A DNA stretch of 30,654 nt from a virus: positions 1 to 30,654 of IMG/VR virus record IMGVR_UViG_3300015206_000008. One strand, 5' to 3'. The number at the start of each line of letters is the position of its first letter. The first letter of the stretch is position 1. Under the pieces are notes generated by a model, which saw nothing but the letters and a program-made list of their open reading frames with translations, was not told the origin of the DNA and made no database searches. The translations under genes and the position numbers were made by a program. This document shows, piece after piece, positions 11,809 to 30,654 of the stretch.

Positions 11809-11845
11809 TGCCTTGCGGGCCTGGGAGCGGGATCAGCAGCCCGCA

Positions 11846-12571: not shown

Positions 12572-12579
12572 GCAGCGCC

Positions 12580-12786
12580 ATGCAAACCGCTACGTCAAAC
12601 CTCGCGATGGAGCTGCGTCACAACGACGAGGCCTTAGGCCACGTGTATGCCGGCGCGGTCGATATCCACGACGAGGAGGAAGTGCAGCACTCCCATGCGC
12701 GCTTCTGGCACGGCCTTCGAGGCCTGCGCTCACGCATCCAGTCTCGACGGCTGCCGCCTATGCACATCGTTTTCGCAAAGGGTTAG
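12580..12786 (+). CDS. Isolated plus-strand small protein inside the late region
   Basis: A 68-residue frame (MQTATSNLAMELRHNDEALG then HVYAGAVDIHDEEEVQHSHA) with good GC-rich third positions from about residue 10. It ends in a basic Arg-rich tail (RGLRSRIQSRRLPP). It is transcribed against the late operon, and its TAG overlaps the stop of the large terminase gene in convergent orientation. No Shine-Dalgarno site is seen; a second ATG at 12607 is an alternative start. No family recognised; a regulatory or DNA-binding role is only a guess from its charge and position. Confidence 0.5.
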   Translation: MQTATSNLAMELRHNDEALGHVYAGAVDIHDEEEVQHSHARFWHGLRGLRSRIQSRRLPPMHIVFAKG

Positions 12787-14459
12787 GCGTAGCGCTTCGC
12801 CGGGCGCTTCTTCCACGCCCAAGGTGCTATTTCGTCCCGCTCGTCATCAGGCAATTGAAGGTCGTGGTACCGTCTCGCGTACATCCAGGCGATGACGCAG
12901 GTAGAGACATAGTCGTCGTGATCACCATTCGGGAACTTGGCGCATTCCTCCATCACGGAATATGAGAACGGCCGGGGTGGGTACCATACGGTCCCTTTTT
13001 CCAGCATCAGCGAGGCTGAGTTGGCGCGCGCCACCAAGTCGCCCTCTCTGCCGCTCTTGCCGCTGGATCCTGATAGCAGCACCGCCTTGACGGGGAGGCG
13101 CTTGCGCCTCAGCTCCTGGACGAGCGAGTGCCCGGAGACCTTCTTCTCAACCAGAATCGTGTCCGGCGCGAATTCCTTATTTAAATCGATCGCCTTTTGC
13201 CGCAAGTCCGGGTACGCCCATCGCTCCTGCACCGCATCGAGCAGCATCATGCTGGTGCGCGTCTGCCCGGTCACCGGCTTGCCGCTGTTCTTGTCTAAGA
13301 ACATCTCGGTGTGCTGAAAAATGCCCCAGGTCGTGCACGCGGAGAAGTCGTTATCCTCCATCTCGTCTTCCTCGAGCGCGGTGTCCCAGACCTGGATGAG
13401 TTGATCGAAGCGCGGCATCGGCCGCTCCTCGCCCGCGTTCGCGCGCCATTCCGGCTGCACCCACGGTCGCCACCAGTGACGCTTCAAGATCAATCCGCCT
13501 TGGCCGGTCGGGCGCTGGTTGTACTGCGCCTGCCAGGCGGCCTCGGACACCAGGCGCTTCTCGGCATTGACGGTCTTGGCACTCATGCGTTTCGGGTCCA
13601 GGATCTCGTTCTCGAGCGTGCGCGGATCCTTGAAGATCGGCGTGGCGCCCTTCTCCACCCCATCGCCCTTGTTGAAGAACGTGATGCAGCGGCGGGTGGG
13701 ATCGAATTCCATGGGCAGGATCAAATGGACCCAGCGGCTGCCCTCGCCCTCGAGCACGTGCCCGAAGATGTCCACGTCGTGGGTGCGCTGGCCCACGTAG
13801 ACCTTCTTGGCGGTGTCGGGGTTATTGACGCGCGAGCGCCAGGCGTTGTCGTGCCAGGCGAGCGCGTTGTGGCGCACCGTGTCGCTTTCGATCTTCTTCG
13901 CGTCGTGCGGGTCATCCAAGATCTGCACCGAGCCGCCGACGCCGACGATGCGGCCCTGCAAGCTACCGATCATCCGATAGCCGCCCTTGCGGTTGCGGTA
14001 CATGCCCGCGGTGTTCTCGTCGTCGTAGAGAATGATCTCGCCCGGGTACTGGGTCTGGTACCACTGCGATTCGATCAGGCGGCGCGACAGAATCGCCGCA
14101 TCTTTGGCAAGGCCATCATCGACGCCCGCGGTCAAGAACTGCTCGCCGGGCTCGTGCAGCCAATGCCACGCCGGCCAGTCCACCGTACAGACCATCGTTT
14201 TGGTGGAGCGGGGCGGCGTGGAGATCATCAGGAAACGGATATCGCCCAAGGTCACGTAGGCCAAGTGATCGCACATCGCGTCGATGTGCCAATTCCACGT
14301 GGGGGTCGAGGGCTGCAGGGTCGGCCAGCCGCGTTTCACAAACAGGCGCAAGGAGCGCCGCGCCTGTTCGGCGGCGACCTCGGTTAGGTACGATCGGACG
14401 TGAGTGGGGGTGAGTTCCGCACGCGGCGGCAGCACATCGCCGGACAGCAGTTCATACAT
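12783..14459 (-). CDS. terL: Terminase large subunit
   Basis: A 558-residue DNA-packaging motor. The ATPase part has a Walker-A-like STPPRSTKT (residues about 80-88) and Walker B VQILDDPHD (about 178-185). The nuclease part has VWDTALEEDE (Asp359), ILVEKKVSG (Glu438) and GDHDDYVS (Asp515/516), the three acidic positions of the RNase-H-like terminase nuclease. It cuts concatemeric DNA and pumps it into the prohead with the small subunit. I prefer the ATG at 14459, which has a GAGG element 8 bp upstream; the longer frame to 14564 would overlap the HTH gene by 73 bp. Family length is normal. Confidence 0.93.
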   Translation of the reverse strand: MYELLSGDVLPPRAELTPTHVRSYLTEVAAEQARRSLRLFVKRGWPTLQPSTPTWNWHIDAMCDHLAYVTLGDIRFLMISTPPRSTKTMVCTVDWPAWHWLHEPGEQFLTAGVDDGLAKDAAILSRRLIESQWYQTQYPGEIILYDDENTAGMYRNRKGGYRMIGSLQGRIVGVGGSVQILDDPHDAKKIESDTVRHNALAWHDNAWRSRVNNPDTAKKVYVGQRTHDVDIFGHVLEGEGSRWVHLILPMEFDPTRRCITFFNKGDGVEKGATPIFKDPRTLENEILDPKRMSAKTVNAEKRLVSEAAWQAQYNQRPTGQGGLILKRHWWRPWVQPEWRANAGEERPMPRFDQLIQVWDTALEEDEMEDNDFSACTTWGIFQHTEMFLDKNSGKPVTGQTRTSMMLLDAVQERWAYPDLRQKAIDLNKEFAPDTILVEKKVSGHSLVQELRRKRLPVKAVLLSGSSGKSGREGDLVARANSASLMLEKGTVWYPPRPFSYSVMEECAKFPNGDHDDYVSTCVIAWMYARRYHDLQLPDDERDEIAPWAWKKRPAKRYA

Positions 14460-14491
14460 CTCAGGCCTCGGCCTGGCTTCGTTTTGGGGTC

Positions 14492-14746
14492 TTAGCGGCG
14501 GTTCACGGGATCCACTTCGATCCGGATATGCACCTTCGCGGTATCGGCCAGGCGGAACAGCCATTGAACGGAAAAGTACTCGTACCGCCCGCGGCGGATA
14601 CGGGAGAGGCGGTTGTGATCGACGTTGGCAAACTCGGCGGCCTGCGCAAGCGATGGAAAGCGGCGTTTCAAATCGGTGTCGATCGCGCGCATCAGCGCGA
14701 GCTTTAACTGGGTCTCACCGTCGAGCGGCTCTGCGAGGGCGGCCAT
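14492..14746 (-). CDS. XRE/HTH_37-like small DNA-binding protein
   Basis: An 84-residue protein. Residues about 25-72 (RFPSLAQAAEFANVDHNRLS, then RIRRGRYEYFSVQWLFRLAD) form a helix-turn-helix followed by the 'RxRxGkxxxFSxxxLxxLAxxAxxxvxI' pattern of the HigA/XRE HTH_37 type, best known as antitoxins. It ends VHIRIEVDPVNRR. It sits between small and large terminase genes, so it may be a packaging co-factor or a late-gene regulator rather than an antitoxin; no toxin gene is adjacent. Its ATG overlaps the previous stop by one base (TGATG). Confidence 0.75.
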   Translation of the reverse strand: MAALAEPLDGETQLKLALMRAIDTDLKRRFPSLAQAAEFANVDHNRLSRIRRGRYEYFSVQWLFRLADTAKVHIRIEVDPVNRR

Positions 14747-15102
14747 CAGCCGGCTTTGTCGGCTTCGTCTTCGATCGCTTGCGTGCGCTGTCGCCCGACT
14801 TTCCCGGATCCGGGGGACGACGGTGCAGCCGGCGCGGATGGCGCCGGTGGCGCTTTCGGCGGTGCGGGCGATCCTTTGATGCTGAAGGGGTCGGTGCGAC
14901 CTCGAGCTACCTGGGGGCGAGCGCCTTGTGTCTCGTTGCCGTCCTGGTCGCGCGATTGCATGATCGGCTCGGGATCATAGGGCACCTGGCGCAGCGGTTC
15001 TTTCTTGGCCGCCGCTGGCGCAGCTGGCGCTTGTCGGTTGGCGACCCCTTCCATGCCAGGCCGGGCCGCGGACTGGTTGATGTCCTCATCGTAGTCTGAC
15101 AT
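14746..15102 (-). CDS. Pro/Ala-rich low-complexity protein
   Basis: A 118-residue, largely disordered protein (start MSDYDEDINQSAARPGMEGV) with an AAPAAAKKEP stretch and a Pro/Ala/Ser-rich centre (SPAPPKAPPAPSAPAAPSSP). AAGGAG lies 7 bp before the ATG, and a promoter-like element stands just upstream (15130-15157). It lies between the small terminase and the HTH gene. No family recognised. Low complexity makes homology calls unsafe. Confidence 0.65.
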   Translation of the reverse strand: MSDYDEDINQSAARPGMEGVANRQAPAAPAAAKKEPLRQVPYDPEPIMQSRDQDGNETQGARPQVARGRTDPFSIKGSPAPPKAPPAPSAPAAPSSPGSGKVGRQRTQAIEDEADKAG

Positions 15103-15129
15103 GGGGCCGCTCCTTGAAGTTGGGGCCTC

Positions 15130-15157
15130 AATATGTCACATGCTGGCTATGGGTCAA
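15130..15157 (-). promoter_or_regulatory. Leftward sigma70-like promoter before the terminase-region genes
   Basis: TTGACC (15152-15157 read on the minus strand) and CATATT (15130-15135) are separated by 16 bp. The expected start near 15123 is followed by AAGGAG and the ATG at 15102. The -35 overlaps the last codons of the small terminase gene. It could give extra or timed expression of the Pro/Ala-rich protein, HTH protein and large terminase. Prediction only. Confidence 0.5.
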
Positions 15158-15942
15158 GCAGGCGTCTTCTGCGTCACGACCGCAACGACGCCCTCATCCT
15201 TTGCCGCTGCCGCTACATCCTCCGGCGTGTAGCCGAGCATTTGCGCGAACTCAAGATCGACCAAGGGCAGCATCTGGCGCGTGAGCGCATTCAATTTCGC
15301 GGTCGGCACGTTGGTGAAATCGAGCGTGTGGTGCTGGTGCTTGTGCTGGTGGCGCTCGATGATCAACTTCTCCGCGAACATGCCGAACTGCCGGCCTAAG
15401 CTGGAAAGATACGTGTGCTGCTCGCGAATCGTGGGCAGGCGGTAGCGGATCTGATCGCCGGTGTCGCTCGTGATCTCGACCACAGCGCGCTGCTCGGGCG
15501 TGAGGTCCGAGTAGGGCTTCAAGCGCTCGGCATACACGGGTGAACCGTGCCACGTGCGCACCTCCTCGACCTCCTTGCCATCCTTGTCCTTGAGGGTTTT
15601 GGTCAAGGGCTGCGCGCTGCGTTCGTAGAACGTGGTCGGATCGAAGAACACCTTTTTGACCATGCCCTGCAGCACCTGGTCTTGATCGATGAGCAGCCGC
15701 TCGGCCACGAGCTTCGCCTTGGCCTCCCTGATGGGGCGCAGGTAGTCGGCAAACTTCTCGAGCTTATCCAAGGCCGCGGTGCCGCTATTCGCGTTCCACT
15801 TAAATCCCGCCTCCTTGTAGGCGCGGTCCTTGTCGAAGTGGATCAGCCAGCGCTCGCAGAAGGCCTTATCCCGCTCGCTCTGCGGCCCGAGTTGCTTCGG
15901 CCGCTTACGCGCGCCCTTGCCGGTGGCATGGCGTCTGGCCAC
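15154..15942 (-). CDS. terS: Terminase small subunit
   Basis: A 262-residue protein. Residues 23-60 (SERDKAFCERWLIHFDKDRA, then YKEAGFKWNANSGTAALDKL) form the 'FveeYl.d.n...A..eAGy' helix-turn-helix of small terminases. This is followed by a central helix (REAKAKLVAERLLIDQDQVL) and the typical FFDPTTFY. It recognises the packaging site and loads the large subunit. A His-rich segment (ERHQHKHQHH, about residue 200) is unusual. The GTG at 15942 is chosen because it overlaps the upstream stop (TAGTG); the longer frame to 16134 would reread the upstream gene. Confidence 0.8.
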   Translation of the reverse strand: MARRHATGKGARKRPKQLGPQSERDKAFCERWLIHFDKDRAYKEAGFKWNANSGTAALDKLEKFADYLRPIREAKAKLVAERLLIDQDQVLQGMVKKVFFDPTTFYERSAQPLTKTLKDKDGKEVEEVRTWHGSPVYAERLKPYSDLTPEQRAVVEITSDTGDQIRYRLPTIREQHTYLSSLGRQFGMFAEKLIIERHQHKHQHHTLDFTNVPTAKLNALTRQMLPLVDLEFAQMLGYTPEDVAAAAKDEGVVAVVTQKTPA

Positions 15943-16196
15943 TAATAACGCCCGGCCATCGCATCTCGCTCGAGGCGCTCGCGAAAGGCCTTGCTGTAGA
16001 CACGAACCGTCGTCTGCAGCACGCCAAAGGGCTGGGTCGTGTAGCTGCCGTAATCGATAAGCTCGAGGCCGACCTTGGCGAGCGCTGCCCGCAGGCTCTC
16101 CTCCCGGCTCGGCTTGATGGAGCAGTACCGCCATTCATCGCGGCCAATTTCGAACTCGAGCTCCTCGAGGAAGAGCGTGTCCATCACCAGGCGCAT
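15942..16196 (-). CDS. Hypothetical protein before small terminase
   Basis: An 84-residue alpha/beta protein (MRLVMDTLFLEELEFEIGRD, then WRYCSIKPSREESLRAALAK). No motif is recognised. Its ATG overlaps the stop of the small membrane protein gene by one base (TGATG) and its TAG overlaps the terminase GTG, so it is co-translated with packaging genes. Confidence 0.6.
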   Translation of the reverse strand: MRLVMDTLFLEELEFEIGRDEWRYCSIKPSREESLRAALAKVGLELIDYGSYTTQPFGVLQTTVRVYSKAFRERLERDAMAGRY

Positions 16197-17235: not shown

Positions 17236-17289
17236 TGACCGTCTCGCTTGATATTGCGGAAGGCGAGCATAGCCCCTACGCTTGCCCGC
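17236..17289. promoter_or_regulatory. Short divergent intergenic gap, promoter inferred
   Basis: This 54-bp gap separates a leftward and a rightward gene, so it should carry at least the promoter of the isolated plus-strand gene at 17290. TTGATA (17248-17253) is a possible -35, but no convincing -10 follows at normal spacing. The evidence is the gene arrangement more than the sequence. Confidence 0.3.
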
Positions 17290-18634: not shown

Positions 18635-18804
18635 CCGTGCCCGCTACTGCCGTTGCGCAGCAAGAATGTGGCGATGAAGAAGGCGAGGCCGAGCCAGCCC
18701 AAATGCGGGGCGTGCCTGGGCGCTGGTGTCATCCACCAGGTGAGGAAGGATTGTAGGACGCAGAAGACCAGGGCGATGACGAGGCAGATGGTTATCCAGG
18801 GCAT
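18631..18804 (-). CDS. 57-residue two-TM protein, holin candidate
   Basis: A short frame opening MPWITICLVIALVFCVLQSF, with a second hydrophobic segment (HLGWLGLAFFIATFLLRNG). It has an excellent ribosome binding site, AAGGAG, 7 bp before the ATG at 18804, and an ATGA overlap with the next gene. Two close transmembrane helices, small size and a place just after the lysozyme gene (with an HNH gene between) are typical of class II holins. No sequence family is recognised. Confidence 0.7.
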   Translation of the reverse strand: MPWITICLVIALVFCVLQSFLTWWMTPAPRHAPHLGWLGLAFFIATFLLRNGSSGHG

Positions 18805-18821
18805 GGAAATCTCCTTCTAGG

Positions 18822-19304
18822 CTAGACGGAAAGCCCATTAGGGCGGCGCTTGTTGGCATTTTGCTGGGCTCGCGTTGCCCAAATGCAATTATCCGGCTCG
18901 TAGTTTCCGTTGTTATCGAGACGCTCGATGGTCAGGGACGGGTGAGGCTTTCTTCCCATGTCCCGCAAAAATGTGGAATAGTCGTTGTTCCACTCATCGC
19001 ACACTGTGATGCCGCGGCCGCCGTAGTCTTTGAATTGCGGAAATTGCGGGTTGTAGCAGCGAGTCCTTATGTTAGCCCAGCACCGATACTCGGCCGTCTT
19101 CCTTGATTCCCCATGGGTCGTGAAACTTTGGCTTACCATTTCGGCCCTTAAACAGCCGCAGCTTTGCGTCCTACCGCTACGCAGATGAAGTCCCATAACG
19201 GACGCCGTTCGCCCGCAGTCGCAGCGACAAATCCAACAGGGCTTATTCCCTTTGTTCTCGTCTTGGTGCAGGACGATCCACCGGCCGTATCGGCGCCCGC
19301 TCAT
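18822..19304 (-). CDS. HNH homing-type endonuclease with N-terminal zinc ribbon
   Basis: A 160-residue protein. The N-terminal part has CRCDCG (26-31) and LRSGRTQSCGC (41-51), forming a Cys-rich zinc module. The HNH part has YGGRGITVCDEW (94-105), a DMGRKP segment, and ERLDNNGNYEPDNCIWAT (127-144). The start lies 5 bp after the lysozyme stop. Base composition is visibly lower in GC than the flanking lysis genes, and the gene separates lysozyme from the holin candidates; both fit insertion as a mobile free-standing homing gene. It shares the YGGRGI...D.G.Y.PxNxxWAT core with the HNH gene at 1530-2024. Confidence 0.85.
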   Translation of the reverse strand: MSGRRYGRWIVLHQDENKGNKPCWICRCDCGRTASVMGLHLRSGRTQSCGCLRAEMVSQSFTTHGESRKTAEYRCWANIRTRCYNPQFPQFKDYGGRGITVCDEWNNDYSTFLRDMGRKPHPSLTIERLDNNGNYEPDNCIWATRAQQNANKRRPNGLSV

Positions 19305-19309
19305 GTCGA

Positions 19310-19807
19310 TTAGTTTGCTGATGTGGATGCTCCAGGAAGGGGAATATCAGCGGGCCAGTTGCCGGTCAAAATCATATTCTCGAGGCGAGTCGCGCGGGCG
19401 GCTTTCACTTGCGAGACCCAGAGGGCATTGCCCTTGATCTCCGCCACGGCGGCAGGGTAGTCCTGTTTCGCTAAATAAGCTAGGAAGTGAGGCCAATTTA
19501 GCAATCCGTGGACCCCGATGTTGTACGCAATGTCAGCGAGGGCGACCTGGCGCACGGGATCCAGCGCCGCATACCACGGAATGACGAGCAGCCCGGTCTG
19601 CGTCTTGGCGATGCGGTTCTTCTCGAGGAATGCGAGCTCGACGGGGTCGAACGGGATCATCAAATTGAGGCCGATACCCACCGACAGGTTGCCCACCAGA
19701 GTCATGCCCTTGAGGAACGTCTTGCCCGTGGCGTCATCGTAGATCAGCAGCTTATTGCCCTCCTCGACCTCGAGTTCGGCGTCCAAGTGATCGGCGGGTG
19801 TGCTCAT
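19310..19807 (-). CDS. T4-type lysozyme (endolysin, GH24)
   Basis: A 165-residue muramidase. The N-terminus has EEGNKLLIYDDATGK (15-29) and LSVGIGLNL (41-49). By comparison with T4 lysozyme, Glu16 is the catalytic acid and Asp25 its partner, while the third position (Thr26 in T4) is Ser42 here, and the usual His of GIGH is Leu. The later DIAYNIGVHGLLNW fits the conserved 'D..yN.G...l' region. It cuts the glycan strand of host peptidoglycan. The ATG at 19807 overlaps the stop of the giant gene in an ATGA. There is no signal peptide, so release depends on a holin. Confidence 0.85.
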   Translation of the reverse strand: MSTPADHLDAELEVEEGNKLLIYDDATGKTFLKGMTLVGNLSVGIGLNLMIPFDPVELAFLEKNRIAKTQTGLLVIPWYAALDPVRQVALADIAYNIGVHGLLNWPHFLAYLAKQDYPAAVAEIKGNALWVSQVKAARATRLENMILTGNWPADIPLPGASTSAN

Positions 19808-22800
19808 GCGAAATCCTCGAGGGAGGCCGCGACGCGCGGCTTGGGGTGTTCGGGCAGGGAGCGCCATAACTCGGCAAAGGCGGGCATGCCGGCACCTCTG
19901 AGCGCCGCGGCGGCATCCTCCCGTCCCTTGCCCTCGATCAGCGAGGAGATTTTATCGGCCGCTTCCTTGGCCTTGACCTTGTCCTGGCGGATGTCGTGCT
20001 CGGTGCCTTTCTCATGGACCTTCGATTCACGTATTTCATCGCGTAGGCTCGCCGCTTCCTGCTCATCGCCTTTTTGGATCGCCACTTTGAGACGCCGATT
20101 TAGGCCCCGGATATAGGACTTCTCGGTCTCGCGTAGCTGGTAGCGCTCCATCTGCTCAGGGCTCGTGACGCGCGCCGGCGCGGGGCCAAAGCCGACATAG
20201 GGCATGGTGGAGAGCACCTTGCCGCGCGTGTCCATCTCCCCGGCGCCCACGAACTGCTTGGTGCCTTGCAACGAGAAGGGCTGCACCTGGCGCGCGCCAT
20301 AGAGAATGCTGTCCCAGGTCTGGCGCTCCCAGGAATGATCGGGATTGCGCACCGCGTTGCCGAAGAAGTCCTCGTTGGCATAGATCGAATGGGCGATGCC
20401 GAAGATCGGGTTCGCCTTGTTGATGATGGTGGTCATCGGCTGGGTGGCGTACTCGTACAGATCCTTGGTGTAGGAGGGCATGGAGATGCGCTCTTTGGTG
20501 CCGTATTTGGTCTTCCGTCCGGTCCAGGGGAAGAAGTAATCCTTGATCTCCTCCGGGCCCTTGCCGGTGAAGAGGTACGTGAGCGCGGCGCCCAATATCA
20601 TGGTGGTGGCAATGAGGGCGAGTGCGTACGGGATCTTGTGTCCCACCTTTTCCGCGATGCGGTGCAGCTTAGATTTCTGCGCCTCGTAATCAAGCCGCGC
20701 CTGGGAAGTCCTCGAGAGCGGCGGGGCGTTGAGTTCTGCCGGCGCGCCACGTGCCATATAGTCGAGTAGCTTGATGACATCGATGGGCGCGCCGCCGAGC
20801 TCGCGGATGGTCCCCAAATTCCACCCCACCGCACGCACCATCATGTGATTGACGTCCTTGAAGGTGCGGTTCCAAAAGACGTTGTCGTAGACCATCTCGC
20901 CCAATCGATTGTCGACCGAATTCCAGATCTTCTGCATCGCATCGGCAAAAACCACCGGATCCTCGAGCGGGTTCCTGCGGATGTGATCGGCGGCAAGGTC
21001 CGAGAACACGCCCAGTTTCTGCAAGGGGACGATGTGTTCCATGATGATGGACGTCGAGGCCCGGGTCATGCGGCCGGCGATCTCGAGCGCCGACATGATG
21101 GGCGCGATTTTCAAAGGCTCCAGGCGCCAGACCTCTTGCAAGTCGCGCCACAACCGCTGCGCGTATTGCTGCGGGAAGGACGTCAGCACTTTCGTGATTG
21201 AGTCCACCTCGCCGCGGGGTTTGGTGAGCGCGGCCTTGATGTCACTGGCCAGTGTCGCGAAGCCCACGCCCTTGAACGGCGAGAGGCCTTGCGCGGCCTG
21301 GAAGTAGTTGTCCATCTTGATCCGGCCGCCGGCGGCCATCAGTCCCTCGACGATGCGGCGCATCTGCGGGGTGGCGCCACCTAAGTTCGAGTAGGCCTTG
21401 AGCAGCTGGCTGCCGCGGCGGATGTTCCACACCGGACCGCCTAATATTCCCTCGAGCAGTGCCTGCGCGGCTTTCAAAGGCTCGCCGTGCGCCAGGCGCT
21501 CGATGGATAGTGCGTTCTTGGAAATGATGGCATCGAGCGTGGTGAAGCCCAAATGGAAGGCCGAGAAGCCGAGCTGCAGCGCGTTGACCGCGTTCGACAT
21601 CACCCTAAAGATTTGGGCGGGGAGGAAATTGCGCAGCGCGGAGGCGGATAGGTGATTGTTGATCACGCGCGCCGCGTCGGTCGGCATGATGTACTTGCCG
21701 CGCTCGATAAACCCTTGCTCGGCTTCACTCCACTGGCGCACGCGCCCCACCGCGTCATTGATCTCGGCCCAGTCATCCGGGCGCAGTTTGCTCGCGGGGA
21801 GGAACTTGGCCAGGCCCTCGTCCTTGAAGCGCTGCATGAGCTTCACACCGGTGTAGAAGCGCATCATCTCGCGCAGCTTGGCGAAGGCCAGCACCAAGGG
21901 ATTGCTGCTGATGGGCACCAGGCCTGCGTCCAGGCCCTCGCGCGTGGTCGGGATGGTACGTTCCTTCAAGAAGGACGCGGGGCCTTTTAAGGGCCGGCGG
22001 CCGAAGATCTGCCCGAAGATCTTCTTGGCCTTATCGTCGCGCTGCCAGATGTGCGGGAAGTAGTTCTCGATGAAGTTATCGAGCGCGCCCACCCCTAACC
22101 CTCGGATGTTCTCCCGCCAGCCGTCCAAGAGCTTGCGGATGGCATCGGCCGCGGGCTGCAGGTCGGGCCGGGTGGGTTTGCCGCCCTCCATGGCATCAAT
22201 GAACTCGTACCGGTCCGGAATGGAGAGCGTGTCGAAGACCTTGCTGAATCGCTCGAGGTTCTTGAGCGCCTCCTCGCTGTTTTGCGCGAGCTCGCCCAAG
22301 GCCTCGCGCGTGACGATGGCGGTCGCCTTCGATGCCTCCGACACGCCGGCAGGGTCCGCGATGCGCCGAAGCGATAGCGTGAATTCGTTGTTCGGGATGG
22401 CCGCGACCGCTCGGCGCGCCATGGCGTAGGCGCCTTTCTTCGGGGTCGGCGCCTCCGCGCCGGCGCTGCCCTTGCGACGCTTCAGGAACATGGGTTGACC
22501 GGCCATGACACTGTCCCGCATAGCGGGCGTGATCTGCACCGTGTGCGCCGGGATGGCTTCCATCTCGCCGTGCAACTTGCCGCCCAACCTCCCCATGAGC
22601 GGCTCGCTCGCCGCCTCGTTGACTGCCTGGGAAAACGTCCGTCCCTGCTCCATGGCATTGATGACGTCGCGCAGCTCCTGTTTCTCGTCTCCGGTGACAG
22701 ACCTGTCGTGCAGGTTCTCGCGCTCGAATTCCTTCAACTCACCGAGTGTGTGGACTGGCCCCACGTAGTGCTTACCCATCTGCGTGCCGGCGACGGTGCC

Positions 22801-25800
22801 CGGCTCCACGCTCGAACCCCACTTCTTCACCAGCTTATTGACGGCCTTGGGGAGGATATCGTCGTAGAAGCCGCGCATGCCGGCACCGCCGACTTTCAGG
22901 TCATCGCCTTTGAAGGTGATCGTCCCCTCATCGCGGCGGCTGACGGCCTTCTGTGCCATATCCTTGCCGATGAGGTCCGCCAGTTTCTTCTCTGAGAGAT
23001 CGTTATGCTCTGCGACCGTGGTGCTGCCCTTGCGCGCAACCAGGTTGTAGCTGTCATTGCCGATCGCCGTGACGTGGATTTTGTCCGCCACCTGCTGCAT
23101 GTTGTAGCGCTCGGCATTGGTGCTGCCGGTATCCCACGAAAGAGCGTCATAGCCGCGCTCGGCGGCATAGCGCAGCATTCGCTTCATCGCGAGCTCGGGC
23201 CACGTGGTCTTGAAGGGCGCATCAGGCACCACGCCGCTATTACCTTCGGCAGCCGCCCATCCGTGCGGATTCGTCGCTTGCGCATCGGCTAGGAGACGCA
23301 CGCGGCGGTACGTCACGAGCGTCGCGACGTCGGCGCTCGGCATATCGCCCCAGCGGCTTTCCCAGTCCTCGTGGCTCAAGATGGCATTCATCGCCTGGGC
23401 GGTCGAATCGAATCCCAAGTCATCGTTTGCCGAGATCGCGTGCCTAGCGCCCTCGGTGGCGTTGCTGAGTTCGCCCACCGTGACCGTCCCAGCCGGCAGC
23501 CGGGTGGGGTCGACATACCCGCCCTTGCGACCTGCCTGGTGCCAATCAGACTGGATCTCATGCAGGTGCAACACCCGTTCGCCATTGGGCCCGGTTCGAT
23601 CATCGAAACGGATATGCGCCAAGACGTTTTTCTCGTCCCAGTGCTGGGACCGATAGTTGCCACCGTTTTTAGCCAGACCCTGCGCATTGGCATCGTCTTG
23701 CGTGGCGGCGTATAGCACGCGGTTTGCAACGATAGATTGCTGCATAGCGTGCCGTGCATCGGATCGAAGTGCTGGGCTCATCCTGTCCACTGCCGCGTGT
23801 AGCTTTGTGATCGCCTCGTCCCTGATGACATTACCGCGAGGGGTGGCCGCGTCGGCCAGCCAGTGGCTCGCATTGGCGCGCAGCACCTGATCATGCGCAG
23901 GTAGGAAGTCCATGAATGCGCGCTCGTAGAATCTGCTGTCGGTCTCAGCCTTGAGCCGCGCCGCGGCGGACACCCTCGCCCGCTCAGTCGCTGCGGCGTC
24001 AGTCTTGGACTCCGCCAGCGTCATCAGCAACTCGCGGTAGTTCTTGCCGCCAGGCGTGGCCCATTGCGGGTACTTCGGGGGCGAGAGCGGCCCCTTGCGC
24101 AATTTGTCCAGCAGGTCCAGGGCCACAGGAGGGATGTCTCCGTCGTGCGCCTCCGAGGCAATGCCGTGCTCGTCCACCGTCATCAGGTACGGCTGCCCGG
24201 TGACATCGTCCTCATGCACCTGGTAGCCCATGTCGCGCAGTTCTTGGAACACAGCCTCGTACGGTGGCTCCTTCGTCACCATATCCTGCACGTTGATGCC
24301 CATGCGGTAGAGCTCTTCCAGCATGTGCTCGGTGTCGGGGCCGCCGGCCATGAGCACATTGAGTTGCTCGTTCTCAAGATCGCCGTAGCCCGACGCAGCC
24401 ATGCGCTCGTTTAGCTGATCTAGCTGATCATCGTTGAGCGCCGCTTGCGGGGTGCCACCGTGCTCGACCTCCCCCACGCGGACAGTATGCGCATGCACAA
24501 ACTCGGCTACTTCGGCCTTGGCTACCCGGCCGCGGCCTTCCAACCAGTCTTTCAGTCCCGTCCATTGCAGTTCCTCTGCCTTCACCCCGGGCATGTTGCG
24601 AAGCGTCGCCTCCCACTCGGCGCCGGTGCCCTTGTCGCGCTTGGCCGCATCGACCGCTTTGGCCAATCCTGAGAAGAAGGTATCCTGTCGGCCTGCGAAC
24701 GCTGGCTCACCAGTGCGAGACTTACCGCCTGGTTCCGTTTCGCTGCCGGCGCGGCCCTGGGACCGACGTAGGTACGATTCGAGATCGGCCAGCGTTCGCT
24801 TCACAAAAAGCTCGTCGAACTTCTTCGGTAAGCCCCAGGCACTGCGCCACAGGTCCCGCAGCATGGCCAGCAGCTTGGTCAACCAGCGCTTGGCGCGCGC
24901 CGGGATGCTCTGGCCGGCGCTGTATTGCTGTCCGTAGTAGGCGAGCACCTCTTCGGCCGCGCGGTTGCGATGGCTCGCATTCAACGGGTTGAAGGTGCCG
25001 GGATACTCCGCCTCGCCCCGCTGCCGGAATGCCGCCGGCATGGCCTCGCGCACCCCGTCCAAGATCGCCTGGTATTGGGCGTTGCGGGCATCGCCGAAGG
25101 CCGCGCGCAGCCCGAAGTGCGTGATGTACTCGTGCGCCATGGTGGTGGCGACGGCGCCGGGGGTCGAGAATTGGTCCGCCACCAGATGGATGGTTTCGGT
25201 GGGCGGGTGCAGGAACGCGGTGACATCGCCGTCCTCGTAGCCAGCCAGGTCAAAGGAGAACTTCGGATTCGCTTGCAGTTCGGCCAGGTTCTTCGCCACC
25301 ACGACGTTGGGCTTCACGGAAAAGCCCTTGAGGATTTTGTCGACCTGGGCGCGCACCTCGAGCGGAGACATGCCGCGTCCCGCGGTCGGGCCCTCACCCT
25401 TGCGCACCGGCGGACCAATCCGTTCGATGCGATCCAGGTGCGGGCGCTTCGGACCCGCCTTGTCCTCCTTCGGCTTGCCATCATCGACGGGCGCCGCGGG
25501 CGCAGCTTTCTCCGGCCAGCCAGCCTCGATCATGGCGCGCACCTTGCGCAAGTCCGAGTGCGCTACCCGCAGCGTCGAGCGTCGGCCCTTTTGGATCGAC
25601 CAGAAGATATCCCGGGCACGCATCTGCTCCGGGGTGCTGGCGATCGCGTAGCCGGTCGGTACCCCGAGTTCACGCAATATGACTCCCTCGAGATCCTGCA
25701 TATCAGCGACGCTCTTCGTCTTCTCGATGAAGGCCCTTACCATGCCCATCGCCTGCACGTAGTCGCGCCGGCCCTGCGGGGTGTTGTTGCGCGGCTTCGC

Positions 25801-28800
25801 GCCCAGCTGATCCATGAGCACCTTGGAGATCGCCGCCACATCCTTCGGCATGCCCGCCTCGATCAACTTGCCCCACTGCGGATTCCAGACCGCTTTCTTG
25901 GTGACGAGTCCCGCAGCCTCGGTCTCGGTCATCTCGGAGAGGTCGGATAAGCGCATGCCGCGCTCCGCCCAGCGATCCTTGCGCGCTCCGCCGATCTTCG
26001 CGCCCGCGTCCTCCAAAGCGCCCGACTTGCTAACTTGCGCAGGTTCGCGAGTTGGCTGATCGGTGAGATCGGTTTGCTTACGTGCCTGGCTGAACAGGTC
26101 ATCCGGTCGTCCGGTCTCCACCGACTCCTGCCCGCTGCTGCGCCGTTTGTCGAGTTCGGCTTCTAGGCGCTTGATCTCATTCTTGACGTTGTTGTTCGCG
26201 CCGAAAAGGTCCTGCTGCACGCCCGGGGGTTTGCCGCCCTTACGCATGAACGGGATGGCATCAAGATCGCTACGGCTGCTCTCGAGGTCGCCCTCCTCGT
26301 TCAAACCCGCCCGTTCGATCTCCCGCTCGAGGCGCTCCTGTTCCGCGCGCAGCTTCTCCAAGCGGCTGTGCGCATCAGCATCGGTGAGCTTCGCGAGATC
26401 CTCATCCGACAACGGATGGCTCCAGTCGCGCCCGATTTCACCTACCTGCGCTTGATTGCGCGAGCTCAAAACCTTGGTGCCGCGCAGCTCGTCGTCGATC
26501 TTGTCGAGCAACACGTTGGGGTCGTAGTGCCCCTGTTTGTTGGCTACCGGGTAACCGGCTTCGTGTAGCGCTTCCGCGGCATGATCGAACGATAGACCGC
26601 CTTTCCGAAAGGCCCGACGGATGCCCACGTGCGCTGCCGATAGCGCCATATCGGCTGGGTCAATCCCTTGGCGCGCAGCCTCTTCGCTATCGAGGCCGCG
26701 AGGATGGCGCGCGAGAAATCCCAGTAGTGAGTCGTGGCGGGGATCCGGGCCAGCGCCTCGGACCACTTTCGCACGAGGAACGGATTCCGGATCGATCGGC
26801 TCCTTGAGGTTGCCCTCTTTGAGCCAGCGCTTGAGCTGGTTGGGATCGAGTTCCGTGATGCCGCCGAAGCCTTTCCAGCCCTTCTGGTAGTGATCAAGGT
26901 AAGTCTGCTTCGCATCCGCGGCATCCTTCGCCCCCAATATGACCTTATGCTCATCGAAAGTCTTTCCGGTGGGATCCAATTGGTCAATGACATGCGCCTT
27001 GTCTCCCTTGCCCGCCATGAACACATCGACGCCATCGCCATCGGCACCATCGGTGCGCGTGAATTCACCGTACGGCACCTTCATCTTGCGCTTCGCGGGC
27101 GTGCCATCGGGCAACTTGAATGAGCGGAAGGACCCGGTCGGGTTCTCGATGCCGATGGGCAGGCCATGCCACGACGTGCGCTCCTTGATGCGTGGCTTGC
27201 CGTTTGGCGCTAGGTCTCCTCCCTGTGCGGCAGCGGTGACGCCAGCCTCCGGCAGATCCGTTTCGCTGTCGCGTCGCGCCGCCTCGCCTTCGTGCTCGGC
27301 TGCACGCTTCGGAATAATTTCCGGGACAAACGGCTTGAGCGTTCCCTCATCGGCGTCGCGCTGGTTGGCCACCCGCTCGCGCTCGGCCGCCCGCTGCTCG
27401 GGGCTCAACGTCATGTCCTGGCGCGGTCCTTCGGTCGGTGCCCCAGCCCGTACCGTTTCTGGGACAGTCTCCTGTGTGGGACTCTCGCCGGTAGTCGTGA
27501 TGTCCTGCAGGGTCGTCGGTTTGGGTTTCTCCCCGGTTATAACCGGGTTTTTACCGGGGGTAGAAACCTCCTCGGCCTTCGGCTGTGTGGGAGTTTCGAC
27601 GGGCTTGGCAGGCTTCGTGCCCACCAGCTTGCGCGCCGCGGCCATGGCCTCGCGCGCCACCGCCGCGGTGTCGAAGTGCACGATGGGCTCGCCCTTCACA
27701 TGTACCGACCAGCCTTCCTCTTCCGGCTGCAGACTCACATCCGAGCGCTTCTCCGCCCGCGATGCCGCTTCATTGAGCGCTTCGGTCTTGGCCTGGTAAG
27801 TCGCACGTGCGTTTGGTGCGCCGGCAGCCGGACCGGCCGCGGGTCCTTGATCTGCACTGGGGGCGGCGGCGGCAGGTCCGGAAGGCCCAGCAAGGCGGCG
27901 AGTCCCCCGCTGATCGCTGGTGGAAACATCAGTCGATTCATAGCGTCTTGTCCCCTCGTTGAATTTATAGCCCGGGTATTCCTCGCCCGGTGCGGGCTTC
28001 GCTCCGGCGCTTAAGTTCTCCCCGGCACTCGTGTAGCGGGCATGCAGCTCGTCCGCATCGGTCTTTGCTTGGGCTCTGGCGTTGGCCGGCGCGGCAAGCC
28101 GCTCCTCGCCTGCCTTGATGAAGCCGGCCGTGGTGGCTGCCACGACGCCGGTATAGGCAATGTCTTTTAAGGCATCGGAGAGACTGGTGTTCTCGTGCAC
28201 GATGCCCGCATCGACCGCCTTTTGAATCGAGGCCTGCAGGATGCCGCCCGCACCGTTTGCGACCATCGCCCCGCCGATGCGCCCGCCGACCGTCTTAGAC
28301 GCCGCGGCGCCGACCATGCGATCGAGCATGACTTTTCCTAACGGGGACTTGGAGAGCACCGCGGACACGGGCACGGCGCCGGCTGCATCGGCCACCGCGT
28401 AGAGCACGCCTGCGGTATTCGCGATCTTGTCGGAACTCGCGGCTAAGTCCGCTGCCGACTGGCGCAGCGCTTCTGATTGTGGGTTTAAGCCGCGCTTCTC
28501 CCCGATCGGCGCCGCGGCATCGACCGCATCCGCCCGCTCGAGGAGCGCGCTCACCTGATCGTCGATCTTATCCTTCGCCTCCGCGCGCTGGGCGGGTGCG
28601 AACAGGGCCACCGCGGTAGCGCCGCCGGCTGCAACGCCTAAGCCCGGGGAGCCGACCGCGGTGCCGGCGAGGGTAGCGCCCGCGACCATCCCGAGCTCAG
28701 GAATGGCGAGCGCGGTGTTAAACGCGATGCCCTTCAAGCTCCACGGGTCGAGCTTGCCGTGCATGAGATCCGTGGGCTGCCAGGCGCGCTCTTCGGCCCA

Positions 28801-29502
28801 GGCCGTTGCGCGTGCCGTGGTGCCGCCCGTGCGATTCGCTTGGCCCTTCTCGAGCGTCTCCTTGGCGTCCGCCATGGCGCTCGCCTGCTCCTCCGGTGTC
28901 ATCCCCGCGTACTGCGCCCACTGGCCAGCGAACACAGTCGGATCAATCCCAAGTTTGATCGCGGTCTTGCGCACCGCCGGATCCTTGGCCATCGTTGGGA
29001 CGTCGGGAATGCCGCTCGACCCTGACCCCATTGAGCGCGCCGCGACCTGGGGCAGCACATTCAAGGCCGCCATCGTCTGCTCGGCGCTCTGCACTTGAGC
29101 GGCGCCCGTAGTCTCCTGGTAGCCGGCCTTGATCTTGGAGACTTGCGCGCCCAAGAGGTGCGGATAGGCCGTGGCGAGCGTCGATACGTCGGGCCCAGGC
29201 GCCAAGAACTTATCCGCATCCGCGCCGATCGACTGTCCCAAGGAGGAGAGCACGCCGGTCTGATAGTGCTGATCAGGATCCTGTGAACTCTGCGGTTCAT
29301 GGCCGAAGAGCAGTTGCTTGGTGCGGGTCATCAGGCCGCGCGTGTTGTCGATCGGATGCGCGTTCGGATCCTGATGCGCTCGCACGAGCGCCGGGGTCGA
29401 GGAGGTATCCGGCCCTACCGGCGTCCAAGGATCCACGGGAGCCGCCGCGCCGGTCGGCGCTGGTGTGTCAGGCCCCTGCGCGATCCAGTCGCCTTCGGCC
29501 AT
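19804..29502 (-). CDS. Giant phage polyvalent protein (3232 aa), probably virion-delivered
   Basis: A single 9.7-kb frame. Visible parts in order: an N-terminal region with Gly/Ala-rich hydrophobic stretches (about 257-300, 358-378, 448-460); Pro/Thr-rich linkers (500-760); an inorganic-pyrophosphatase-like polyvalent domain (about 765-905: NPTGSFR, YGEFTRTDGADGDGVDV, FDEHKVILG); a conserved FRKGGLSFDHAAEALHEAGY element near 960; a coiled-coil stretch (about 1030-1130); a metallopeptidase-like domain with AHEYITHFGLR (HExxxH at 1457-1462); a large module with HEIQSDWHQ (about 1981-1989) and GMRGFYDDILP (from 2208); ENYFPHIWQ (about 2479-2487); and a transmembrane segment (about 2957-2980). 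Proteins of this kind are carried in virions or made early to protect injected DNA and disarm the host. Domain names rest on motif recognition. The ATG follows the previous stop by 2 bp. Confidence 0.85.
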   Translation of the reverse strand: MAEGDWIAQGPDTPAPTGAAAPVDPWTPVGPDTSSTPALVRAHQDPNAHPIDNTRGLMTRTKQLLFGHEPQSSQDPDQHYQTGVLSSLGQSIGADADKFLAPGPDVSTLATAYPHLLGAQVSKIKAGYQETTGAAQVQSAEQTMAALNVLPQVAARSMGSGSSGIPDVPTMAKDPAVRKTAIKLGIDPTVFAGQWAQYAGMTPEEQASAMADAKETLEKGQANRTGGTTARATAWAEERAWQPTDLMHGKLDPWSLKGIAFNTALAIPELGMVAGATLAGTAVGSPGLGVAAGGATAVALFAPAQRAEAKDKIDDQVSALLERADAVDAAAPIGEKRGLNPQSEALRQSAADLAASSDKIANTAGVLYAVADAAGAVPVSAVLSKSPLGKVMLDRMVGAAASKTVGGRIGGAMVANGAGGILQASIQKAVDAGIVHENTSLSDALKDIAYTGVVAATTAGFIKAGEERLAAPANARAQAKTDADELHARYTSAGENLSAGAKPAPGEEYPGYKFNEGTRRYESTDVSTSDQRGTRRLAGPSGPAAAAPSADQGPAAGPAAGAPNARATYQAKTEALNEAASRAEKRSDVSLQPEEEGWSVHVKGEPIVHFDTAAVAREAMAAARKLVGTKPAKPVETPTQPKAEEVSTPGKNPVITGEKPKPTTLQDITTTGESPTQETVPETVRAGAPTEGPRQDMTLSPEQRAAERERVANQRDADEGTLKPFVPEIIPKRAAEHEGEAARRDSETDLPEAGVTAAAQGGDLAPNGKPRIKERTSWHGLPIGIENPTGSFRSFKLPDGTPAKRKMKVPYGEFTRTDGADGDGVDVFMAGKGDKAHVIDQLDPTGKTFDEHKVILGAKDAADAKQTYLDHYQKGWKGFGGITELDPNQLKRWLKEGNLKEPIDPESVPRAKVVRGAGPDPRHDSLLGFLARHPRGLDSEEAARQGIDPADMALSAAHVGIRRAFRKGGLSFDHAAEALHEAGYPVANKQGHYDPNVLLDKIDDELRGTKVLSSRNQAQVGEIGRDWSHPLSDEDLAKLTDADAHSRLEKLRAEQERLEREIERAGLNEEGDLESSRSDLDAIPFMRKGGKPPGVQQDLFGANNNVKNEIKRLEAELDKRRSSGQESVETGRPDDLFSQARKQTDLTDQPTREPAQVSKSGALEDAGAKIGGARKDRWAERGMRLSDLSEMTETEAAGLVTKKAVWNPQWGKLIEAGMPKDVAAISKVLMDQLGAKPRNNTPQGRRDYVQAMGMVRAFIEKTKSVADMQDLEGVILRELGVPTGYAIASTPEQMRARDIFWSIQKGRRSTLRVAHSDLRKVRAMIEAGWPEKAAPAAPVDDGKPKEDKAGPKRPHLDRIERIGPPVRKGEGPTAGRGMSPLEVRAQVDKILKGFSVKPNVVVAKNLAELQANPKFSFDLAGYEDGDVTAFLHPPTETIHLVADQFSTPGAVATTMAHEYITHFGLRAAFGDARNAQYQAILDGVREAMPAAFRQRGEAEYPGTFNPLNASHRNRAAEEVLAYYGQQYSAGQSIPARAKRWLTKLLAMLRDLWRSAWGLPKKFDELFVKRTLADLESYLRRSQGRAGSETEPGGKSRTGEPAFAGRQDTFFSGLAKAVDAAKRDKGTGAEWEATLRNMPGVKAEELQWTGLKDWLEGRGRVAKAEVAEFVHAHTVRVGEVEHGGTPQAALNDDQLDQLNERMAASGYGDLENEQLNVLMAGGPDTEHMLEELYRMGINVQDMVTKEPPYEAVFQELRDMGYQVHEDDVTGQPYLMTVDEHGIASEAHDGDIPPVALDLLDKLRKGPLSPPKYPQWATPGGKNYRELLMTLAESKTDAAATERARVSAAARLKAETDSRFYERAFMDFLPAHDQVLRANASHWLADAATPRGNVIRDEAITKLHAAVDRMSPALRSDARHAMQQSIVANRVLYAATQDDANAQGLAKNGGNYRSQHWDEKNVLAHIRFDDRTGPNGERVLHLHEIQSDWHQAGRKGGYVDPTRLPAGTVTVGELSNATEGARHAISANDDLGFDSTAQAMNAILSHEDWESRWGDMPSADVATLVTYRRVRLLADAQATNPHGWAAAEGNSGVVPDAPFKTTWPELAMKRMLRYAAERGYDALSWDTGSTNAERYNMQQVADKIHVTAIGNDSYNLVARKGSTTVAEHNDLSEKKLADLIGKDMAQKAVSRRDEGTITFKGDDLKVGGAGMRGFYDDILPKAVNKLVKKWGSSVEPGTVAGTQMGKHYVGPVHTLGELKEFERENLHDRSVTGDEKQELRDVINAMEQGRTFSQAVNEAASEPLMGRLGGKLHGEMEAIPAHTVQITPAMRDSVMAGQPMFLKRRKGSAGAEAPTPKKGAYAMARRAVAAIPNNEFTLSLRRIADPAGVSEASKATAIVTREALGELAQNSEEALKNLERFSKVFDTLSIPDRYEFIDAMEGGKPTRPDLQPAADAIRKLLDGWRENIRGLGVGALDNFIENYFPHIWQRDDKAKKIFGQIFGRRPLKGPASFLKERTIPTTREGLDAGLVPISSNPLVLAFAKLREMMRFYTGVKLMQRFKDEGLAKFLPASKLRPDDWAEINDAVGRVRQWSEAEQGFIERGKYIMPTDAARVINNHLSASALRNFLPAQIFRVMSNAVNALQLGFSAFHLGFTTLDAIISKNALSIERLAHGEPLKAAQALLEGILGGPVWNIRRGSQLLKAYSNLGGATPQMRRIVEGLMAAGGRIKMDNYFQAAQGLSPFKGVGFATLASDIKAALTKPRGEVDSITKVLTSFPQQYAQRLWRDLQEVWRLEPLKIAPIMSALEIAGRMTRASTSIIMEHIVPLQKLGVFSDLAADHIRRNPLEDPVVFADAMQKIWNSVDNRLGEMVYDNVFWNRTFKDVNHMMVRAVGWNLGTIRELGGAPIDVIKLLDYMARGAPAELNAPPLSRTSQARLDYEAQKSKLHRIAEKVGHKIPYALALIATTMILGAALTYLFTGKGPEEIKDYFFPWTGRKTKYGTKERISMPSYTKDLYEYATQPMTTIINKANPIFGIAHSIYANEDFFGNAVRNPDHSWERQTWDSILYGARQVQPFSLQGTKQFVGAGEMDTRGKVLSTMPYVGFGPAPARVTSPEQMERYQLRETEKSYIRGLNRRLKVAIQKGDEQEAASLRDEIRESKVHEKGTEHDIRQDKVKAKEAADKISSLIEGKGREDAAAALRGAGMPAFAELWRSLPEHPKPRVAASLEDFA

Positions 29503-29504: not shown

Positions 29505-30654
29505 CTATTGCGTCGTCTGCGGTGCGCCGCCCGCGATGGATCCCGCAGATACTTTGATGGGCTTGCCGTCAATGCCCAACGTCCAGCTGCCCTTCGCGCC
29601 GAAGTTCCTGACCTTGCCGTGCTCGAGGCCCTGCATCGCGGCCGGCGGCGGCGCGTCGGGGATGATGGCCTCGTTGGCCTTGGCGAGCGCACCGGCGCCG
29701 TACTTGTTGGTGATGTACTGATCGGCAGCGCGCTGCGCCGTTTTCTCATCCAAGCTCTCGGCCAACGCTGACTTGTACACGGACGTGTGATCGGCATTGG
29801 CATTGCCCGTGGGCTTGAATCCCAAAATCCGGGTCGCCTTTTCAGGCTCGATGCCGAGCACGTTGGTGGCGTACTTGTAGGTACGCACCGCGGCCGGATC
29901 CCCCTTGTCGATGCCGGAGCCGGCCTCTTTGCCTAACACCCTGCCCTGGAAGGGCTTGCCGTCGATACCGCTCTTGACCGGCGTGGCGGTCGCGCCTTTG
30001 CCGTCCTCGTCACGCGAGAGGATGTGCAGCGTGTTGTGCGAGTCCACCGCGTAGGTGGGTGAGCCCAGCGTGGCCGCCTTGGTGGTCTCGACGTCGCTGA
30101 TGGATTTCAAGGCCGAGGCCTGGTCCTTCACCGCGGCCGAGTCGCCCTTGGCTTGATCGGACGAGGCTTTCTGCGCCGCGGCCGGTGTGCCGATGCCCGC
30201 TTGCTCCTTATCGCGCGCCGTCTCGATGGCGCCGGCCTGCGTGTCGTACGCCCCTTGCGCCGCGGTGATCTTGTCCTGGTGCGCCTTACTGCTCGCGTCG
30301 TGCTCGTCCGACAGCGTGCCGGTCAGCACCGCGCCCTGATTGGTGGTCGCCTGACTCGAGTTCTTCATCAGGTGCAGGCCAAACTCCAAGAGCGCGGCAA
30401 ACTTCTCCTTTTTGGTCTGCGGCTCATCGTCTGAGGGGCGCGCGCCCATCTGCGCCTTCATGTTGTCGTACTTATCGTCGATATCGCCGTGCTGCTGCTG
30501 CCACCAGTCCATGTACTCCTTGCGCGACGCGGCGGTCGCAGCGTTCAGGACATCGAGCGTGGTCTTCGCCTTGGTGAGCTTCTCCGGATCCGGGAACTTG
30601 AGTTTCACCGTTGGCGTCGCGATCTCGCCCTTGGTGTTGCCCGTGCCCTGCGCA
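29505..30654 (-). CDS. Virion-associated-like protein, 5' end outside window
   Basis: At least 382 residues, rich in Ala, Lys, Asp and Thr, mostly helical with a coiled-coil-like centre (QDKITAAQGAYDTQAGAIET, then ARDKEQAG). The C-terminal part is more compact (VLGIEPEKATRILGFKPTGN; AAMQGLEHGKVRNFG). A GTG at 30608 could start it, but it has no ribosome binding site, and the frame stays open to the window edge (the residues before it read AQGTGNTKGEIATPT), so the gene probably begins upstream. It ends 2 bp before the giant gene, suggesting a shared function such as an internal virion or ejection protein. No family is recognised. Confidence 0.6.
   Translation of the reverse strand, partial: AQGTGNTKGEIATPTVKLKFPDPEKLTKAKTTLDVLNAATAASRKEYMDWWQQQHGDIDDKYDNMKAQMGARPSDDEPQTKKEKFAALLEFGLHLMKNSSQATTNQGAVLTGTLSDEHDASSKAHQDKITAAQGAYDTQAGAIETARDKEQAGIGTPAAAQKASSDQAKGDSAAVKDQASALKSISDVETTKAATLGSPTYAVDSHNTLHILSRDEDGKGATATPVKSGIDGKPFQGRVLGKEAGSGIDKGDPAAVRTYKYATNVLGIEPEKATRILGFKPTGNANADHTSVYKSALAESLDEKTAQRAADQYITNKYGAGALAKANEAIIPDAPPPAAMQGLEHGKVRNFGAKGSWTLGIDGKPIKVSAGSIAGGAPQTTQ

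What the first reader, a model, noticed from the sequence alone, without database searches (positions are those of the whole stretch)
19804..29502. A 3232-residue polyvalent protein combining pyrophosphatase-like, HExxxH peptidase-like and EIQSDWHQ modules
One gene takes up almost a third of the window and strings together at least four conserved modules plus a C-terminal membrane segment. The HEYITHFGLR site has three residues between HE and H rather than the two of classic zincins, and the function of the EIQSDW...GMRGFYD module is not known to me. Its place between a virion-like gene and lysozyme suggests a packaged protein that enters the host with the DNA, as DarB-type proteins do.
Basis: partly seen in the sequence, partly recalled or inferred. 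Interest (0 to 1): 0.65.

Follow-up and report, generated by a model that had tools for sequence, protein, structure and literature searches.

The report
Giant phage polyvalent protein, acetyltransferase-like module
This is a very large virus-of-bacteria protein of a known kind, several enzymes strung on one chain and probably injected with the viral DNA, and its one mysterious module turns out to have the predicted fold of an acetyltransferase and to be common in uncultivated phages although the domain libraries searched here hold no model for it.

Summary
One intact ORF of 3232 codons lies on the minus strand at 29502-19804, with the motifs at the stated residues.

It is a phage polyvalent protein (Iyer et al. 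2017, PMC5512222), not a new kind. That paper already describes the pyrophosphatase (Pfam InPase, E 2.4e-36) and an HEXXXH peptidase clade. Here 23 relatives share H1457, E1458, H1462, G1464 and a likely third metal ligand, E1518.

The new part is the EIQSDW module (residues ~1607-2339). None of 75 relatives matches a fitting Pfam or NCBIfam model. PHROGs catches it only inside a profile labelled 'endolysin'. AlphaFold models give the GNAT strand order with two large insertions. All 50 best VIA-align matches are GNAT-superfamily structures (top Z 10.3). The usual acetyl-CoA loop motif is missing and profile-profile support is weak, so the fold is predicted and the activity unknown. At least 560 viral contigs carry it, but only four phages among 50,697 records.

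Packaging is inferred. The gene lies between a virion-like gene and the lysis and terminase genes. A close relative has a DNA-ejection gene two genes upstream. Shorter EIQSDW genes abut portal genes or follow tail genes. Cargo domains swap between relatives around a shared peptidase, GNAT-like and C-terminal chassis.

The parts
19804..29502 (-). polyvalent protein gene, 3232 aa
   Evidence: homologues L002/L003/L011/L094
27193..29502 (-). N-terminal region, residues 1-770, function unknown; 61% identical to L003
   Evidence: part of the DarB-like PHROG 10089 match (residues 403-904)
26794..27186 (-). InPase domain (residues 773-903), type I pyrophosphatase-like; acidic residues D821, D823, D826, D850, E851
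   Evidence: Pfam PF18823 125 bits, cut-off 26.8; conservation in 22 relatives
24823..25374 (-). HExxxH zincin-like peptidase domain (residues 1377-1560)
   Evidence: 23-sequence alignment A8
25117..25134 (-). HEYITH motif, residues 1457-1462
24949..24951 (-). E1518, likely third metal ligand, invariant
22486..24684 (-). GNAT-like EIQSDW module, residues 1607-2339, with insertions
23542..23559 (-). EIQSDW motif, residues 1982-1987 (C-terminal end of predicted strand beta-4)
22861..22881 (-). GMRGFYD motif, residues 2208-2214 (start of predicted helix alpha-4)
19807..22485 (-). C-terminal region, residues 2340-3232, best conserved part (84% to L003), with a hydrophobic helix at ~2956-2979
20281..20412 (-). 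divergent LPD38-like stretch, residues ~3031-3074
   Evidence: profile-profile only: probability 73%, E 3e-5, 44 columns; no Pfam LPD38 match
29505..30653 (-). virion-like gene directly upstream (stop TAG 2 nt before the ATG), runs off the contig
   Evidence: homologue L003:8695-9987 lies next to a DNA-ejection-protein gene
19310..19867 (-). lysozyme-type endolysin directly downstream, overlapping the 3' end
   Evidence: PHROG 7 endolysin E 7e-5
12783..16134 (-). terminase large (12783-14564) and small (15154-16134) subunits, same strand, further downstream
   Evidence: PHROG 38 E 7e-66, PHROG 51 E 7e-8

Best explanation
A late-expressed phage polyvalent protein that is probably packaged in the head and ejected with the DNA. 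Inside the cell (or in the head) its zincin-type HExxxH domain probably cuts the chain into parts. The InPase domain would remove pyrophosphate or a nucleotide-like signal. The EIQSDW module, an insertion-bearing GNAT-fold domain, would transfer an acyl group to a host molecule such as a protein or tRNA during take-over. The C-terminal region, which has a hydrophobic helix, is the most conserved part and is the likely packaging or membrane-channel anchor. Shown by sequence: domain identities, conserved residues, gene order, cargo swapping. Predicted: the GNAT fold. Inferred: packaging, self-cleavage, all activities and targets.
For: InPase 125 bits, with acidic residues conserved in 22 relatives. 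HExxxHxG plus E1518 invariant in 23. EIQSDW module: 19 invariant columns in 75; model pLDDT 86, pTM 0.82; all 50 VIA rows GNAT superfamily, best Z 10.3 over 128 residues, 32 chains with Z>=8. A separate model of the window's own sequence also ranks GNATs first. Gene order: virion-like gene - polyvalent - lysis - terminase here, with a DNA-ejection protein upstream in L003 and L096. In other phages EIQSDW genes abut a portal gene (13 loci), follow a T7-type tail-tubular gene (18) or adjoin an internal-virion-protein gene. Cargo swapping: GGDEF, LPD1, RadC, ART, PBECR5 or helicase in relatives. Literature: DarB-like giant of podovirus JC1 found in virions by mass spectrometry (PMC9144972); phage P1 DarB packaged (PMC9024508); autoproteolysis idea (PMC5512222).
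Against: No virion proteomics for this phage. The canonical GNAT Q/RxxGxG/A loop is absent and hhalign to cellular GNATs gives only 3% probability, so acyl-CoA binding is not indicated by sequence. Foldseek alone finds nothing below E 0.001 in the PDB. The zincin fold was not modelled and its profile finds no solved structure with confidence.
Confidence: 0.7

Rival explanations
1. The protein is mainly structural: a large internal core or ejection-channel protein (T7 gp16-like role) whose enzyme-like modules are degenerate and serve as building blocks.
For: Position at the internal-virion-protein slot of T7-like phages in several relatives; the C-terminal region is far better conserved (84%) than the enzymatic modules (50-66%); hydrophobic helix near the C terminus.
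Against: Predicted catalytic residues are invariant over distant relatives; enzyme cargo is swapped between relatives, which fits effectors better than a pure scaffold.
Confidence: 0.2
2. The EIQSDW module only shares a general alpha/beta arrangement with GNATs and is a different enzyme or a binding domain.
For: Weak sequence support, no CoA-loop motif, Foldseek E 0.012 at best; two large insertions.
Against: Strand and helix order matches GNAT throughout; all 50 VIA rows are GNAT superfamily and the best Z, 10.3, is above the 7-8 that the tool's notes call typical for unmatched models; hhalign, without structure, aligns the same helix-3/strand-5 register; invariant residues fall at the ends of beta-4, alpha-3 and alpha-4, where GNAT active sites lie.
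Confidence: 0.25
3. The protein is made late and acts in the infected cell only, never packaged.
For: No direct virion evidence; the gene sits next to the lysis genes.
Against: Linkage to ejection, portal and internal-virion-protein genes in relatives and virion detection of a DarB-like giant placed just before the lysis module in JC1.
Confidence: 0.12

Closest known systems
Phage polyvalent proteins (Iyer et al. 2017, PMC5512222)
   Same: Several disparate enzyme domains on one chain; InPase and HEXXXH peptidase both listed there; late, virion-gene neighbourhood
   Different: Holds the EIQSDW GNAT-like module, which is not among the families found in Pfam/NCBIfam; the paper's two GNAT families are described as RimI-like with other phyletic ranges
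DarB-like giants of Bcep22-type podoviruses (JC1 gp69; PHROG 10089)
   Same: Giant gene between a virion-associated gene and the lysis module; local similarity to the PHROG over residues 403-904 including InPase
   Different: No helicase or methylase in this protein; no similarity found for its C-terminal third in phage isolates
Portal or minor-head proteins with a C-terminal InPase (Pa193 gp19, PDB 9b41)
   Same: Same InPase domain, E 2e-19, physically in a virion
   Different: Fused to the portal there; that domain had no density in the map (PMC11042391)
GNAT acetyltransferases (AtaT, KacT, TacT, NatD, Elp3, ICL2)
   Same: Predicted topology beta1-alpha1-alpha2-beta2-beta3-beta4-alpha3-beta5-alpha4-beta6-beta7
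   Different: No Q/RxxGxG/A loop; insertions between beta4/alpha3 and beta5/alpha4; own invariant set EIQSDWHQxG ... GMxxFYD
phiKMV Rac
   Same: A phage GNAT that acetylates host RNA polymerase (cited in PMC7824862); precedent for the proposed role
   Different: Small free-standing protein; homology not tested

Membership tests
Phage polyvalent protein | two or more domains of disparate activity in one polypeptide | tested here: met
   InPase, HExxxH peptidase-like, GNAT-like
Phage polyvalent protein | encoded among late virion genes | tested here: met
Phage polyvalent protein | carried in the virion and injected | not testable with these tools
   needs virion proteomics
InPase (PF18823) | score above the curated cut-off | tested here: met
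   125 bits against 26.8
InPase (PF18823) | conserved metal-binding acidic residues | tested here: met
   D821, D826, D850, E851 invariant, D823 in 86% of 22 relatives
HEXXXH zincin-like peptidase clade (Iyer 2017) | HEXXXH plus a downstream Glu as third ligand | tested here: met
   H1457, E1458, H1462, E1518 invariant in 23
HEXXXH zincin-like peptidase clade (Iyer 2017) | zincin fold | tested here: inconclusive
   not modelled; profile search of PDB sequences gives only a zincin-like protein at E 0.71
GNAT acetyltransferases | GNAT topology | tested here: met
   predicted model only; Z up to 10.3, all 50 rows GNAT superfamily
GNAT acetyltransferases | match to GNAT sequence models | tested here: not met
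   0 of 75 members match a Pfam GNAT model at E 0.05; PF00583 not found in the window's record
GNAT acetyltransferases | acyl-CoA loop Q/RxxGxG/A before helix 3 | tested here: not met
   PDAPFKxxW precedes helix 3 in the alignments
GNAT acetyltransferases | acyl-CoA binding and transfer | not testable with these tools
   biochemistry needed
LPD38 (PF18857) | match to the Pfam model | tested here: inconclusive
   no HMMER match in P0001 or relatives' records (whose controls were silent too); profile-profile 73%, E 3e-5 over 44 columns
DarB (antirestriction) | helicase/methylase modules | tested here: not met
   none found in P0001

The most novel reading that the evidence does not exclude
The EIQSDW module is the prototype of an unrecognised acyltransferase family with a GNAT fold and a non-canonical cofactor loop, one of the common cargo domains of ejected proteins in uncultivated phages, acting on a host target in the first minutes of infection.
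Probability: 0.45. Interest if true: 0.7.

Novelty: new variant of a known kind. Interest (0 to 1): 0.5.

Why it matters
Polyvalent proteins are a known but little-tested store of phage take-over functions. A strongly conserved domain that Pfam and NCBIfam do not hold, that PHROGs names 'endolysin' by transfer, and that occurs in at least 560 viral contigs but only four phages among 50,697 records, is a blind spot in phage annotation. A predicted GNAT fold turns it into a testable acyltransferase. The short versions (about 600-700 aa, next to portal genes) give tractable constructs.

Tried and rejected
DNA-level comparison with phage isolates: no match. tblastn of the C-terminal 948 aa: no match. 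Viral-contig scans with the zincin alignment A2 (not conserved enough) and with the bare zincin sequence (none confirmed) failed; A4 worked. Foldseek of the window's own EIQSDW model gave no significant PDB match, probably because long low-confidence insertions dominate; a short-insert homologue gave a clear answer. A GNAT assignment by sequence alone was tried and is not significant (unrelated control E 0.68). LPD38 by Pfam in relatives' records: nothing, but its controls were silent too. 'Endolysin' (PHROG 7348) for the EIQSDW module is rejected as label transfer from a 2564-position mosaic profile. A text search for EIQSDW in papers found none. Promoter/terminator scan of 11000-20500: no more sites than in shuffles.

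Full report
WHAT IS THERE. The ORF is real and on the minus strand: ATG at 29502, stop at 19804, 3232 aa. The window is a whole IMG/VR viral record of 30,654 bases that ends inside the upstream gene. Relative L003 (IMGVR_UViG_3300021170_000017, 65.5 kb) covers residues 6-3232 at about 67% identity. Over 3032 aligned codons the third position differs twice as often as the others, so the frame is under coding constraint throughout.

MODULES. (a) Residues 773-903 are the InPase domain of polyvalent proteins. D821, D826, D850, E851 and K853 are invariant in 22 relatives and D823 nearly so. The same domain ends the portal protein of Pseudomonas phage Pa193 (PDB 9b41), and 466 phage-isolate records match the N-terminal 905 residues, nearly all those listed through InPase and often annotated as portal, minor head, internal head or virion structural protein. 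(b) Residues 1377-1560 are the HExxxH peptidase-like domain. In 23 relatives only H1457, E1458, H1462, G1464 and E1518 are invariant, which is the expected H/E/H + E pattern of a zincin with one extra residue in the motif. Iyer et al. 2017 describe exactly such an HEXXXH clade, and propose that polyvalent peptidases cut their own chain. (c) Residues 1607-2339 are the EIQSDW module (below). (d) Residues 2340-3232 are the best conserved part (84% to L003), with a hydrophobic helix at about 2956-2979 and a stretch that profile-profile comparison links to LPD38, a domain listed as phage-only in the 2017 paper. (e) Residues 1-770 and 904-1376 remain unassigned.

THE EIQSDW MODULE. In 84,980 bacterial and archaeal species genomes 106 were confirmed. 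Among 50,697 phage records only four phages carry it. 75 relatives share 19 invariant columns and none fits a Pfam or NCBIfam family. All 75 match PHROG 7348, named endolysin, a long mosaic profile. The full module in short proteins runs from a 'KGTG...PGVKxEE..TGLD..L...VTK' segment over 'PGGENYRE', 'HWDEPNVLAH', 'EEIQSDWHQxGRKKGY', 'PDAPFKxxWxELAxKR' and 'GGEGMKGFYD' to 'DITPxMR...GQPLF'.

STRUCTURE. The window's own core gave pLDDT 81. Foldseek found nothing significant, but VIA-align put GNATs in nearly all rows with Z up to 6.2. A short-insert homologue (L044, 470 aa, 74 sequences) gave pLDDT 86.4 and pTM 0.82. With this model all 50 VIA rows are GNAT-superfamily structures (acetyltransferases, tRNA-acetylating toxins, ICL2, Elp3, NatD, p300/CBP, acyl-homoserine-lactone synthase), best Z 10.3 over 128 residues at 3.7 A, with 32 chains at Z 8 or more. 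The top ranks are tied within 1, so no subfamily or substrate can be read from them. Foldseek's best PDB row is NatD (E 0.012, probability 0.77). Matching the elements by order (my reading of the DSSP line): beta1 84-88, alpha1/2 96-132, beta2 149-154, beta3 209-220, beta4 223-232, insertion, alpha3 297-311, beta5 316-320, insertion, alpha4 399-418, beta6 424-430, beta7 443-450. The invariant residues lie at the end of beta4 (E230, Q232, S233, D234), the start of alpha3 (W297) and the start of alpha4 (Y405, D406), where GNATs hold cofactor and catalytic residues (general knowledge of the fold). Sequence comparison with 28 cellular GNATs is not significant (probability 3%, E 0.014) but gives the same alpha3/beta5 register; an unrelated control gave E 0.68. 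The usual Q/RxxGxG/A loop is absent. I therefore state a GNAT-like fold, not membership of a GNAT family and not proven catalysis.

CONTEXT. On the minus strand the order is: virion-like gene (29505-30653), polyvalent gene two bases after its stop, endolysin, HNH endonuclease, small membrane and lipoprotein genes (my reading), VRR-NUC-like nuclease, terminase small and large. In L003 the homologue of the virion-like gene is preceded by a DNA-ejection-protein gene (PHROG 4287, E 1.5e-13), and L096 has the same pair. Across 174 loci with the module (window and overlapping loci included), 13 have a portal gene directly downstream, often 4 nt away. In 18 a T7-type tail-tubular gene lies upstream within 5 kb, in 7 an ejection protein within 2.5 kb, and in 7 an internal virion protein adjoins. 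These are lower bounds from a few query genes, with no random control. In Burkholderia podovirus JC1 the 4515-aa DarB-like protein, placed just before the lysis module, was the virion protein with most unique peptides (51; PMC9144972). Phage P1 DarB is packaged through its N terminus (PMC9024508).

CARGO SWAPPING. The closest relatives keep peptidase, GNAT-like module and C-terminal region but change the rest: L003 adds GGDEF and LPD1, L011 carries a strawberry-notch/SNF2-type helicase, L094 GGDEF and RadC, L095 an ADP-ribosyltransferase, L096 a PBECR5 nuclease. L094-L096 were fetched by the peptidase alone, so their EIQSDW modules are independent support for the pairing; L097-L100, fetched the same way, have none. 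More distant carriers have LPD37/38/39, SLT, MuF_C and ART domains. This modular exchange is what the polyvalent concept predicts.

MECHANISM. Most likely the protein is packed with the DNA, ejected, and cut by its own zincin so that the parts reach different targets. The InPase part removes pyrophosphate or a defence nucleotide (both proposed in 2017). The GNAT-like part acylates a host protein or tRNA. A phage GNAT with such a role is known (phiKMV Rac on RNA polymerase, cited in PMC7824862). Packaging and activities are inferences; domain identity, conservation and gene order are shown.

VERDICT. A new member of the polyvalent class overall; what lifts it is the widespread, unannotated GNAT-like module. 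Hence 'new variant of a known kind' and interest 0.5.

Noticed in passing
L003:9989-20818: This polyvalent protein carries a GGDEF domain (PF00990 E 4e-8) beside InPase and an LPD1 domain; GGDEF recurs in L094. GGDEF in polyvalent proteins was noted in 2017 as not widespread.
   Followed up: partly
L028, L053, L054, L062, L068, L069, L076, L078 (EIQSDW ORF then portal gene): In many uncultivated phages a short protein with the EIQSDW module is encoded about 4 nt before the portal gene; it may be a head protein in its own right.
   Followed up: partly
PHROG 7348: The label 'endolysin' of this 2564-position profile is caught by all 75 EIQSDW modules tested and is probably a false transfer.
   Followed up: yes
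L169-L172, L174-L179, L181 (about 8.9-10.6 kb in the longer loci): A group of ~550-590 aa ORFs with a partial EIQSDW-core match in Thiodiazotropha and other, mostly gammaproteobacterial, MAGs; possibly a separate solo branch.
   Followed up: no
window 18822-19304: HNH endonuclease gene (PHROG 374 E 2e-59) inside the lysis region, probably a free-standing homing gene; 1530-2024 looks similar by eye.
   Followed up: no
window 2285-3142, 691-1533, 6494-7408: By eye: Dam-like adenine methylase (DPPY), a cytosine methylase-like gene and a Gp37/Gp68-type gene in the early region; not tested.
   Followed up: no
window 16351-16968: VRR-NUC-like nuclease (PHROG 824 E 4e-27; PHROG 5702 Holliday junction resolvase E 6e-7) next to the terminase genes, conserved in L003.
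   Followed up: no
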